From NCBI GenBank assembly GCA_003602415.1, contig QQSK01000013.1, positions 116,220 through 180,219 on the forward strand: a stretch of DNA of 64,000 nt, read 5' to 3'. The stretch comes from Candidatus Poseidoniales archaeon (GTDB taxonomy: Archaea > Thermoplasmatota > Poseidoniia > Poseidoniales > Poseidoniaceae). Below the pieces are notes generated by a model that saw nothing but the letters and a program-made list of their open reading frames with translations, searched no databases and was not told where the DNA came from. The position numbers were made by a program, and so were the translations under genes. Shown here one piece after another: positions 418-4,615 of the stretch (position 1 is the stretch's first letter; every line of letters starts with the position of its first letter).

Positions 418-744
418 TCAGTTTCGCCTGATTAGGTCGCTGGTTTGAACGTTGCCATCAGGGCCGATGATAATTGGCTGGCCTTCTTCCCATCCTGGGC
501 AGTTATCTGAAACCCATGTTCGTGTAGCCCATTCGCAGATGTCGTATCCGCCAGATAGTATTCCTGAACGCTTGATGTATCCTACTTTGACAATGTCCTT
601 GTCCTTTGAAAGGACGTTTCCGAGTTGTTGACTAGTTGTTCCATGCCTCATGGTGCTGTTGATGTGCTCTAGGATCTCTGCGGTATTTCGCGGTTTGTCA
701 CCTAGGAACTTCTTGATTTTCTCTCGTATTCTTACTGTCTTCAT
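418..744 (-). CDS. small winged-helix-like protein
   Basis: 108 aa ORF with wHTH-like pattern (RIREKIKKFLGDKPRNTAEILEHINS...LGNVLSKDKDIVKVG). Confidence 0.6.
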   Translation of the reverse strand: MKTVRIREKIKKFLGDKPRNTAEILEHINSTMRHGTTSQQLGNVLSKDKDIVKVGYIKRSGILSGGYDICEWATRTWVSDNCPGWEEGQPIIIGPDGNVQTSDLIRRN

Positions 745-1006: not shown

Positions 1007-3295
1007 TTGGTGACAATGGTGCGTAGTAATCGTATTAGATCTACATACCAAAGAAGAATCCTAGATTGGCTTGCAGATGGAGGAGGAACTGTAACTGAAG
1101 TTTCTCAGGCGCTGGGGATCAGAATCCCTCACGCTTCTGCAGCCCTGAAAAAACTCAGAGAATCGGGCGACGTCGCCAGAGATCATGTTAGTCAACGCGG
1201 CTCTAGATATCGCTTATCTTCTCAAGGATTGACCCGTTTAGAATCAGATGGTTTGTCTAGATTGAATGAGTTGGTAAGGTGGCCTCCGCCACCAGGTGCG
1301 GCAGGGATAGTTTTGGCTAGAGAAGGGCCTATGCTACTACTTGGTTACGCCTCAATGCCAGCTGGACCTCTGCTTGGACTACCTGAAAGGCCAATGAATG
1401 AGGAAAGTGGAGTGATGGAAGATTCCACTGGAAATCAAGGGGAGTCTGACACATGGATTTGGGCTGTACAAAGAGGAGATGGTCCAGTATGGTGGGATTT
1501 AGATTCCTCGAGGAGGGCACAACCACCAGAAGAACCGAGTTCTCTAACATTAGCTGCTTGGATGGAACGTCCAAAAGTAATGGGTATTGTTCGAGCAAGA
1601 ATATTGGATGAAACAAATCCTTGGCCCTTAGGAGTTGGAAGTTGGTTCAAAACTTTACCAACTGGTTACTGGCCTGAATTACCACAGGTATTACGCGATG
1701 GTGATGCAGCAATTGGTCGTGCAGGTAATTCCGGTCCATTGGTTAGCCCTAGAGGCGGGATGCATGCTAGAATAGGAAGGAGAACAGATCGTTCATTATT
1801 GATCAATAGTTTCGTTGAAGAATCATTTACGGTTGCAGATGGCGACCTTTTGGCACGTCCAGAATCTGCTTTACCCAAGGGTTTGCTCAAGCATTGGCTG
1901 AAGATTATCCATCCACGTCTCAATCAACATTCAATCAATGAGAGATTCGAGAGGTTATCTAAAGACATAGATTCTTCATCATCCAATGCATTAACCAGAA
2001 AGTTACTCAATGATTTCCCAGGAAGGGTTTGGAAGAATCAGAAGACCAAATTCATAGACACTCGCTCTCTTTCACAAAGAGGTGGAGAGGCAGCGTTAAG
2101 ATACGCTATTGAGGTTAGTGAAGATTCCATTGTCTTGGATTGGAGATGGAATGAAAATGTGGAATTGTTGAACAGGTTTTCAAGTGATACTCGTTGTAAA
2201 TTATTGATTTCAGAATCGTCTCAAACCAATTTGCCATTCATCCTGACTTCGACAAATGAAACTGGTAAATTCAAATTAGAAATTCCTGGCAGACTATACC
2301 TCCCAATTAGTATCAAACAAGACGAATCTGTACCTGAGGATTGGAAGGCTCCAAAATCTCCATCAGAATTAGTTCGAGGTAATTCGAATACAATTTCAAA
2401 TGCAGATAATGAGTTAGATGCTATGTGGAAAGCGTGCATGCTACAATCTGGTAACGATGTCTGGGCAGATAGACACGAGAAAGAATATCCTCTAGCCTCA
2501 TGGATTGCAACCAGTAAAGAAAACCAGGTGGCAAGATGGAGGAGAATTGGAAATCAAATCGATCCGGTTTGGGCTGGCTTGGCCGATATGACAATTTTTG
2601 ATGATGATGATTTAGCAGACCTAGCGTTAGTTGATGACAAGGCACTTTCGATATTGATAGCTAGAATTAGGAATAATCCTTTGCGAATATTATCGAAAAC
2701 CGTGACAAATCCTGCTATTGCAACCGCAATTTTGCTTAGCACAGAATGGATTGATATCGACGCAGATGTCATAGATTGTTGGCTAACCAATCCTCTACGT
2801 GTATCAGATGTCCTTAGAAGGAATTGGGGCAAATCAGAAATCGGGAGATTGGTAGATGCCTGTCAACATCACAGTGTTCTATTCAATAATTCCAAAATTC
2901 ACGATAGAATTCAAATTCTTGCGATAATGGAAGATGTGCATTATTCGTTGTGGAAAGAACATTCTGTTGAATGGTTATCCATTTGTTTGGGCTCTACTAT
3001 TGGCAGAAATGCCTTGTCTATGCTAGATTTACCTTGGCCTGCTATCGTATACGAACAAAATCTAGATTCAGGTGATTTAGTCTTGATTCACCACATGCCA
3101 GATGGAATAGGAACAGATTCACTGAAAGATGTGATGGAAGGGTTAGAGGCTAGGGAGAATAATCGTCCACCAAGCCAAGGAAGAACACATCCATTGGCAG
3201 GATGGTTATTCCAGGAATTGGTTCCTCAGCCTGAATTAGATACTGAATATGATTTGGATATTCATATCGCTTTGCACCGACGCTTTGAACAATGA
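1007..3295 (+). CDS. large protein with N-terminal winged-helix (MarR/ArsR-like) domain, otherwise unassigned
   Basis: 762 aa ORF; N-term RRILDWLADGGGTVTEVSQALGIRIPHASAALKKLRESGDVARD resembles wHTH. Confidence 0.8.
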   Translation: MVTMVRSNRIRSTYQRRILDWLADGGGTVTEVSQALGIRIPHASAALKKLRESGDVARDHVSQRGSRYRLSSQGLTRLESDGLSRLNELVRWPPPPGAAGIVLAREGPMLLLGYASMPAGPLLGLPERPMNEESGVMEDSTGNQGESDTWIWAVQRGDGPVWWDLDSSRRAQPPEEPSSLTLAAWMERPKVMGIVRARILDETNPWPLGVGSWFKTLPTGYWPELPQVLRDGDAAIGRAGNSGPLVSPRGGMHARIGRRTDRSLLINSFVEESFTVADGDLLARPESALPKGLLKHWLKIIHPRLNQHSINERFERLSKDIDSSSSNALTRKLLNDFPGRVWKNQKTKFIDTRSLSQRGGEAALRYAIEVSEDSIVLDWRWNENVELLNRFSSDTRCKLLISESSQTNLPFILTSTNETGKFKLEIPGRLYLPISIKQDESVPEDWKAPKSPSELVRGNSNTISNADNELDAMWKACMLQSGNDVWADRHEKEYPLASWIATSKENQVARWRRIGNQIDPVWAGLADMTIFDDDDLADLALVDDKALSILIARIRNNPLRILSKTVTNPAIATAILLSTEWIDIDADVIDCWLTNPLRVSDVLRRNWGKSEIGRLVDACQHHSVLFNNSKIHDRIQILAIMEDVHYSLWKEHSVEWLSICLGSTIGRNALSMLDLPWPAIVYEQNLDSGDLVLIHHMPDGIGTDSLKDVMEGLEARENNRPPSQGRTHPLAGWLFQELVPQPELDTEYDLDIHIALHRRFEQ

Positions 3296-3297
3296 GA

Positions 3298-3575
3298 GCC
3301 ACCGACACTAACTCGACCGCACATGCAACATCGCACGGAGAGCGTCCGCTCAGTGAACTGCGATACCAATGTATGCGGTCGCGTGCCATCGACGAAGACC
3401 AGGGTGACTCTTAGGAGAATGACCTCTGATGCAAACCGATGGACAATGTGGTCGGTAATGGGTCCTCGCTGGACGAGAGAATGAGAGTGAGACAACCAAC
3501 CGGCTGCACAGATAAGCCCTGACCCTGGGTCAAGCCTCCGAGGAGACAGTGACAGGGGCTGTTACGGGTCGGGGC
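3298..3575 (+). ncRNA. candidate structured ncRNA (unassigned; RNase P RNA-like hints)
   Basis: GC-richer non-coding interval between two CDSs with nested complementary segments: GCC(A)CCGAC 3298-3306 / GTCGGGGC 3568-3575; CGACCGCA 3314-3321 / TGCGGTCG 3374-3381; ATCGCA 3330-3335 / TGCGAT 3359-3364; ACCGA 3435-3439 / TCGGT 3452-3456; AGCCCTG 3515-3521 / CAGGGGCT 3553-3560. Confidence 0.45.
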
Positions 3576-3625
3576 ACAGATTTCTTTGCGATTCATTGAA
3601 TAGCCATCCAAACCCAGTGGATAGT

Positions 3626-4615
3626 ATGGGGAAGTTGGAGCGCTGCTTAGTCGGTGGCACTTTCGACAGATTTCATGATGGCCACAAGGCTTTGCTCGAA
3701 ATGGCATTAGATGTCGCAGAGTTAGTCGAAGTTTGGATCACAAACGATGAAATGTCGGCCTCTAAATCTCCTGTACTCGAATCTTTTGAAGATAGAAGGG
3801 AAGCAATTCTGGTCTGGGCCGATGAAAGAATCACTACTCATGAATTAGAAGATAGTCTTGGTCCTGCTCCAATCCGAAAAGATTGCGACAGTATCATTTG
3901 CACTCCTGAGACTTTGAACAACTGTCAAAAAATCAATGAAATGAGATTACGAAATGGTTTGATTCCTTTAGAAATCATAGAAGTTCCTCACACACTTGAT
4001 GAGAATGGCGGAATAATTTCTAGTTCTAGAATCAGAGCTGGATTGATTGACAAAGAAGGGAAAGTTTGGCTAAATGAGACCAACCGACTAAACACATATC
4101 ATTTTCATTCTGGTTTGGATTCAGAACTCAAGAAACCATCTGGTGAATTATTTCCAGGTCCAGAAGAATCTCCAGAGATTGCAATGTCTGCAGCGATGGA
4201 GAATATTGCTCCAGGCGGCATTGTAGCGGTTGGAGATGTAAGCGTGGCGACATTGCTTGACATGGGTGTAATTCCAGATATTGCACTAGTGGATGGGATG
4301 ACTAAGCGTACAGAGTTAATCGAGAAAGTAGAACTCTCGCAATTTGATTTGCTAATCTCAGCAGTCAATCCTGCCGGTCAAATCACTCCCTCTCTCATCC
4401 AATCAATCGATGCTGCACTCCATAGTGACCAAACAACTTGCATCGAAGTCGATGGGGAAGAGGATTTAGCTCCAATTATTGTACACCTATTGGCACCTAT
4501 AGGCACTAATGTTGTTTATGGGCAACCATCCAAAGGAGTCGTATTACGCATTACCGACCTTGCAGCAAAAGAACAATGTCGAGGCTTGCTATCAAGATTC
4601 GAGGTGAGAAATTGA
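3626..4615 (+). CDS. fusion of archaeal phosphopantetheine adenylyltransferase (CoaD-like) and GTP-dependent dephospho-CoA kinase (DUF359)
   Basis: LVGGTFDRFHDGHKALLEMA nucleotidyltransferase motif; C-terminal GGIVAVGDVSVATLLDMGVIPDIALVDGMTKR typical of DUF359. ORF track start is 3596; ATG at 3626 preferred. Confidence 0.85.
   Translation: MGKLERCLVGGTFDRFHDGHKALLEMALDVAELVEVWITNDEMSASKSPVLESFEDRREAILVWADERITTHELEDSLGPAPIRKDCDSIICTPETLNNCQKINEMRLRNGLIPLEIIEVPHTLDENGGIISSSRIRAGLIDKEGKVWLNETNRLNTYHFHSGLDSELKKPSGELFPGPEESPEIAMSAAMENIAPGGIVAVGDVSVATLLDMGVIPDIALVDGMTKRTELIEKVELSQFDLLISAVNPAGQITPSLIQSIDAALHSDQTTCIEVDGEEDLAPIIVHLLAPIGTNVVYGQPSKGVVLRITDLAAKEQCRGLLSRFEVRN

What the first reader, a model, noticed from the sequence alone, without database searches (positions are those of the whole stretch)
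3298..3575. Unassigned multi-stem ncRNA candidate between a wHTH gene and the CoA-biosynthesis fusion
Seen: ~278 nt non-coding, GC-richer than surroundings, with closed ends (GCC(A)CCGAC / GTCGGGGC), a long nested hairpin (CGACCGCA / TGCGGTCG enclosing ATCGCA / TGCGAT) and a 3' multi-hairpin (AGCCCTG / CAGGGGCT). Segments GCAAACCGATGG, AGAGAATGAGAG and AACCGGCT faintly recall RNase P CR II-V, but no clear P4 pairing was found. It could be a divergent RNase P RNA or a novel RNA.
Basis: partly seen in the sequence, partly recalled or inferred. Interest (0 to 1): 0.62.

Follow-up and report, generated by a model that had tools for sequence, protein, structure and literature searches.

The report
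HgcG-type H/ACA guide RNA, four motifs
The stretch encodes a conserved small RNA of marine Poseidoniales archaea that, judging by its structure and its match to ribosomal RNA, most likely directs the conversion of up to four uridines near the ribosome's catalytic centre into pseudouridine; it is a diverged, enlarged relative of the known Pyrococcus guide RNA HgcG (Pab40).

Summary
In detail: 3298-3575 holds a real structured non-coding RNA (core about 3313-3580, + strand). It is not RNase P RNA, which lies elsewhere in the same genome (222 bits). It is a tandem array of four H/ACA-type guide hairpins with K-turn/K-loop signatures. Motifs II-IV are orthologous to HgcG (RF00064 = Pab40 = Pf7): Rfam's model hits it below threshold (best 30.9 bits, E 6e-7, in a relative), and a model built from these RNAs hits 10 of 12 Thermococcales HgcG loci in return (E 1e-7 to 2e-12). 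It is syntenic and found in 181 of 194 Poseidoniales genomes searched. Stems covary strongly while guide pockets stay nearly invariant. Target scans put motif IV on 23S U1915 and motif II on U2496 (E. coli numbers), the published Pab40 targets L2016 and L2588. Motif III fits U2555 and motif I U2606. Motif I is absent from Thermococcales HgcG, whose P. abyssi rRNA has C at 2606; it has no ACA box, so it is H/ACA-like at best. No expression or modification data exist here, so function is inferred. Verdict: a known kind of RNA in a divergent four-motif variant that Rfam's threshold misses.

The parts
3313..3580 (+). whole four-motif H/ACA guide RNA; exact 5' and 3' ends not determined
   Evidence: R1 full-length match to the own locus, 301.6 bits; conserved core in alignments
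3315..3380 (+). motif I (H/ACA-like, no ACA box): lower stem 3315-3321/3374-3380, upper stem 3330-3335/3359-3364, apical stem 3340-3343/3348-3351, K-turn GGA 3337-3339 / TGA 3354-3356, pocket GCAAC 3325-3329 and ACC 3365-3367; predicted target U2606
3386..3445 (+). motif II: lower stem 3386-3391/3437-3442, upper stem 3400-3404/3424-3428, K-turn TGA 3405-3407 / TGA 3420-3422, pocket CGAAG 3393-3397 and GCAA 3431-3434, ACA 3443-3445; predicted target U2496 (= P. abyssi L2588, Pab40.1)
3448..3510 (+). motif III: lower stem 3448-3456/3499-3507, upper stem 3465-3470/3486-3491, K-loop GGA 3471-3473 / TGA 3482-3484, pocket TAATGGGT 3456-3463 and ACAACC 3492-3497, ACA 3508-3510; predicted target U2555
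3516..3578 (+). motif IV: lower stem 3516-3525/3566-3575, upper stem 3533-3538/3555-3560, K-loop GA-rich 3540-3544 / TGA 3550-3552, pocket GGGTCA 3527-3532 and GTTAC 3561-3565, ACA 3576-3578; predicted target U1915 (= P. abyssi L2016, Pab40.3)
3277..3292 (+). promoter-like block (CCGACG .. TTTGAACAA), inside the last codons of ORF 1007-3295; inferred BRE/TATA
   Evidence: position and sequence match by eye to the conserved CGATG..TTGAAAA block of other genera; not tested

Best explanation
The RNA is the Poseidoniales orthologue of the archaeal H/ACA guide RNA HgcG/Pab40/Pf7, enlarged by a fourth hairpin at the 5' end. Each hairpin would bind L7Ae at its K-turn or K-loop and the pseudouridine synthase Cbf5 with Nop10 and Gar1. 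The two arms of its internal loop would pair with 23S rRNA on either side of one uridine, which Cbf5 then isomerises to pseudouridine. Motif IV would guide 1915 in helix 69 and motif II 2496 in the peptidyl-transferase region, the sites that Pab40 guides in Pyrococcus; motif III most likely guides 2555 and motif I most likely 2606. Shown here: conserved structure, homology to HgcG, complementarity to rRNA, presence of Cbf5. Inferred: expression, RNP assembly and the modifications themselves.
For: Reciprocal covariance-model matches: Rfam HgcG hits the window RNA (18.6 bits, E 0.0058) and the same RNA in G115 over the full model (30.9 bits, E 6.1e-7); model R1 hits 10 of 12 Thermococcales HgcG loci (E 2e-12 to 1e-7), including P. 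abyssi Pab40 at its published coordinates. Stems covary, pockets do not vary. Motif II gives U2496 and motif IV U1915 as best site in all six Poseidoniales genomes scanned against their own 23S rRNA; the same scan on P. abyssi returns L2588 and L2016, the sites reported for Pab40. The motif II guide changed GAGG to GAAG together with the rRNA change CCUC to CUUC. Found in 181 of 194 genomes of the order. Cbf5 encoded in the genome.
Against: No expression or modification data. Scores against Rfam HgcG are far below its gathering score of 77. Motif I has no ACA box, and motif II keeps an ACA only in part of the group. Taken singly, shuffled guides reach the score of I in 6% and of II in 3% of trials, and the pocket register was chosen by me, so these figures are optimistic; for the window's own motif II, U2610 ties with U2496. 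The window genome's own 23S rRNA is missing from its assembly.
Confidence: 0.88

Rival explanations
1. It is an HgcG orthologue in which only motifs II and IV are working guides; motif I and motif III are structural or decayed and guide nothing.
For: Motif I has no ACA box. The U2555 fit of motif III is lost in part of family f2, and needs one guide base left out. In P. abyssi the homologous motif is assigned a different site, L1932, equivalent to E. coli 1816.
Against: The pocket of motif I (GCAAC/ACC) is nearly invariant over the order and gives U2606 as best site in every genome scanned; P. abyssi, whose HgcG lacks motif I, has C at 2606. The U2555 fit of motif III is reached by 0 of 1500 shuffled guides.
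Confidence: 0.35
2. Motif III guides U2586 (the equivalent of Haloarcula pseudouridine 2621) rather than U2555.
For: GGUC of the 5' arm pairs with GACC next to U2586, and P. abyssi motif III gives U2586 as its best site in the same scan. Haloferax HP1, called the homologue of Pf7 stem II, was proposed for this site (PMC2584109).
Against: Pairing at U2586 is weaker (score 21 against 33 for the window guide) and skips two bases.
Confidence: 0.2
3. A divergent RNase P RNA.
For: Short recalled sequence resemblances only.
Against: No RNase P match here; a full RNase P RNA is elsewhere in the genome, 222.5 bits; the structure is four H/ACA hairpins.
Confidence: 0.01
4. An mRNA leader or other cis-regulatory element of the PPAT::DUF359 gene, since it always lies just upstream of it.
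For: Position upstream of the same gene in both families.
Against: Homology to a trans-acting guide RNA of Thermococcales and complementarity to rRNA at published sites. A promoter-like block precedes the RNA itself.
Confidence: 0.03

Closest known systems
HgcG RNA, RF00064 (Pab40 of P. abyssi, Pf7 of P. furiosus, Tko1 of T. kodakarensis)
   Same: Order of three H/ACA motifs (our II, III, IV), two of three guide targets (E. coli 2496 and 1915), reciprocal covariance-model matches.
   Different: Extra motif I at the 5' end; motif III pocket fits 2555 instead of the L1932 site assigned to Pab40.2; scores far below Rfam's gathering cut-off.
Archaeoglobus Afu4 (Af4.1-Af4.3)
   Same: Three motifs, the last guiding L1970, described as closely related to Pa40.3 (PMC4652768).
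   Different: First motif guides a 16S site (S1167), second L2601. Not compared directly here; by my estimate of numbering L2601 could be the 2554/2555 equivalent.
Haloferax volcanii HP1 and HP2 (Hvo1, Hvo2)
   Same: HP2 guides the 1915 equivalent; HP1 is called the homologue of Pf7 stem II (PMC2584109).
   Different: Two hairpins separated by a long spacer; HP1 proposed for U2586; no homologue of Pf7 stem I reported.
Pyrobaculum H/ACA-like guide RNAs
   Same: Guide hairpins that depart from the canonical motif (PMC4652768), as motif I does here.
   Different: They lack a full lower stem; motif I here has a 7-pair lower stem but no ACA box.

Membership tests
Archaeal box H/ACA guide RNA | Stem - internal loop - stem hairpin | tested here: met
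   Four such hairpins, all ten helices supported by double changes
Archaeal box H/ACA guide RNA | K-turn or K-loop in the upper stem | tested here: met
   Conserved GA on the 5' side and TGA on the 3' side in all four motifs; L7Ae binding not tested
Archaeal box H/ACA guide RNA | ACA box after the lower stem, 14-16 nt from the upper stem | tested here: inconclusive
   Met by III and IV nearly everywhere and by II in the window; not met by motif I
Archaeal box H/ACA guide RNA | Pocket arms complementary to rRNA around one U | tested here: met
   U1915, U2496, U2555, U2606 for the window guides; lost for III in part of f2
Archaeal box H/ACA guide RNA | Partner proteins encoded (Cbf5, Nop10, Gar1, L7Ae) | tested here: inconclusive
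   Cbf5 found, 317.9 bits; the other three not searched
Archaeal box H/ACA guide RNA | Guides pseudouridylation in the cell | not testable with these tools
   needs RNA and rRNA modification data
HgcG (RF00064) | Score above Rfam's gathering cut-off (77 bits) | tested here: not met
   18.6 bits in the window, 30.9 at best
HgcG (RF00064) | Statistically significant homology to known members | tested here: met
   E 6.1e-7 one way, E 2e-12 to 1e-7 the other way
HgcG (RF00064) | Guide targets of Pab40.1 (L2588) and Pab40.3 (L2016) | tested here: met
   Equivalent sites U2496 and U1915
HgcG (RF00064) | Three-motif architecture | tested here: not met
   Four motifs; motif I is extra
Archaeal RNase P RNA (RF00373) | Match to the family model | tested here: not met
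   No hit in this stretch; the true copy is elsewhere

The most novel reading that the evidence does not exclude
A four-motif H/ACA RNA in which an added, ACA-less first motif guides pseudouridine 2606 and a third motif with an altered pocket guides 2555, so that one RNA modifies four sites around helix 69 and the peptidyl-transferase centre, with guide and rRNA changing together between archaeal lineages.
Probability: 0.45. Interest if true: 0.5.

Novelty: new variant of a known kind. Interest (0 to 1): 0.4.

Why it matters
I found no paper in the held library that mentions both Marine Group II and H/ACA. The model built here finds the RNA across the order, where Rfam's cut-off misses it. It gives specific, testable predictions of pseudouridines in the ribosomes of abundant ocean archaea, and it shows a guide RNA that gained a motif and changed another while its two core sites stayed fixed. 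It also shows that a curated RNA family can be much wider than its threshold suggests.

Tried and rejected
RNase P reading. Other sub-threshold Rfam matches (Afu_514, SNORA51, mir-194, PhotoRC-I), taken as chance. Other pocket registers for motif III (GUC/GAC counted into the upper stem, or U2586 as target): weaker pairing. The pattern search for Thermococcales HgcG gave only a contig cut off inside the RNA, but it served as a handle to the family. The sigma-70 promoter scan is not informative for an archaeon. Literature searches for later work on Haloferax sites and on Thermoplasmata guides gave nothing useful.

Full report
What is there. Rfam at gathering thresholds finds nothing there. At relaxed E-value the only match with a small E-value is HgcG, RF00064, 18.6 bits, E 0.0058, covering 3384-3583. 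The genome's RNase P RNA is on another contig at 222.5 bits.

Conservation. A DNA search found the RNA in most same-genus genomes and in several other genera of the family. A covariance model (R1) built from 24 members (alignment A1) matches 181 of 194 genomes of the order, in both families and nearly always over its full length. The gene order upstream ORF - RNA - PPAT::DUF359 is kept in both families.

Structure. The alignment shows four tandem hairpins. I drew the structure from the window sequence and a first alignment and then counted it: 96.5% of cells pair, 38 of 62 pairs have changes on both sides, and there are 124 such cells against 24 in shuffles and at most 20 when partners are slid. 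RNAalifold on the same alignment, without my structure, finds largely the same helices. With the second family added the figures are 93.1%, 54 of 62 and 446 cells; that alignment was fitted to the model and so leans toward it. Each hairpin has a lower stem, an internal loop whose two arms hardly vary, an upper stem, and a GA / TGA pair of strands typical of a K-turn or K-loop. ACA follows motifs III and IV almost everywhere, motif II in part of the group, and motif I not at all.

Identity. The Rfam HgcG model hits the same RNA in relative G115 over its whole length at E 6.1e-7. In reverse, R1 hits 10 of 12 Thermococcales HgcG loci at E 2e-12 to 1e-7. One of these, G215:C1:382332-382604, has exactly the coordinates that PMC4652768 gives for P. 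abyssi Pab40. The P. abyssi transcript starts at the first H/ACA motif according to that paper, which is our motif II; TATA-like TTATAA stretches are visible upstream of it in most of the Thermococcales sequences. Loci of other Thermoplasmatota (L136, L140, L141) have only a short stretch where motif I would be. Motif I is therefore extra in Poseidoniales. A promoter-like block lies at -45 to -30 from its pocket in 49 distinct upstream sequences, a few of which are probably misplaced by the simple anchor search, and this suggests that transcription starts at motif I (inference).

Targets. A simple two-arm scan pairs motif IV with GUAAC[UA]UGACCC at U1915 and motif II with UUGC[UA]CUUCG at U2496; motif I gives U2606 and motif III U2555 (E. 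coli numbers). For I, II and IV this is the best site in all six genomes that have both the RNA and their own 23S rRNA. For III it is so in G035, G036 and G040, but not in G039, G108 and G150, whose pocket reads ACUACC. The window genome lacks its own 23S rRNA, so its guides were scanned against the rRNA of G035; there motif II ties between U2496 and U2610. Applied to P. abyssi, the same scan returns L2588 and L2016, which are the sites reported for Pab40.1 and Pab40.3. A single offset of 26 places all 11 P. abyssi positions that I checked on U, which supports the numbering; several of those positions I recalled rather than read. Of 1500 shuffled guides per motif, the fraction with an equal or better score is 0.062 (I), 0.03 (II), 0 (III) and 0.012 (IV). 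These values ignore that I chose the pocket registers. They are modest alone; the argument rests on the agreement with published sites and their constancy over the order. Between P. abyssi and Poseidoniales the guide of motif II changes GAGG to GAAG while the rRNA changes CCUC to CUUC. P. abyssi, which lacks motif I, has C at 2606.

Mechanism. From established knowledge of archaeal H/ACA RNPs (PMC4652768, PMC6138745), L7Ae binds the K-turn, Cbf5 with Nop10 and Gar1 binds stem and ACA box, the rRNA is held in the pocket and the U is isomerised. Cbf5 is in this genome; Nop10, Gar1 and L7Ae were not searched. Expression and modification are not shown.

Novelty. It works like HgcG and is its orthologue by sequence, structure and two targets. 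It falls outside the family as Rfam delimits it (30.9 against 77 bits at best), carries an additional motif, and has a different pocket in motif III. I therefore call it a new variant of a known kind. A specialist would find it useful and unsurprising in principle; the prediction of sites 2555 and 2606 is the part worth testing.

Noticed in passing
window 3596-4615 (+): One ORF joins a CTP_transf_like domain (phosphopantetheine adenylyltransferase type) and DUF359 (archaeal dephospho-CoA kinase, from general knowledge), so two CoA steps may be fused; the arrangement downstream of the RNA is kept in both families.
   Followed up: partly
window 1007-3295 (+): A 762-aa ORF without any Pfam match lies upstream of the RNA in all Poseidoniales loci examined, although its sequence diverges to about 25% identity.
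   Followed up: partly
L097, L099, L100, L104, L105, L106 (family f2): Motif III reads ACUACC instead of ACAACC, with a diverged 5' arm and no good fit to U2555; the motif may have lost or changed its target.
   Followed up: partly
G210:C1:629971-630180: A Thermococcales genome has a second, weak match to HgcG (35.4 bits), possibly a paralogue.
   Followed up: no
L079-L090, Rfam RF00064 model positions 1-56: The first fifth of the Rfam HgcG model seems to cover the promoter region rather than the RNA: TTATAA-like boxes lie there, and PMC4652768 reports that the transcript starts later.
   Followed up: partly
window 3277-3292; upstream of motif I in 49 distinct sequences: A conserved CGATG-N-TTGAAAA block looks like a Poseidoniales BRE/TATA promoter; in the window it overlaps the end of the upstream coding region.
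   Followed up: partly
window 418-744 (-): ORF matching DUF3860 (PF12976, E 1.5e-33), a domain of unknown function with a solved structure.
   Followed up: no
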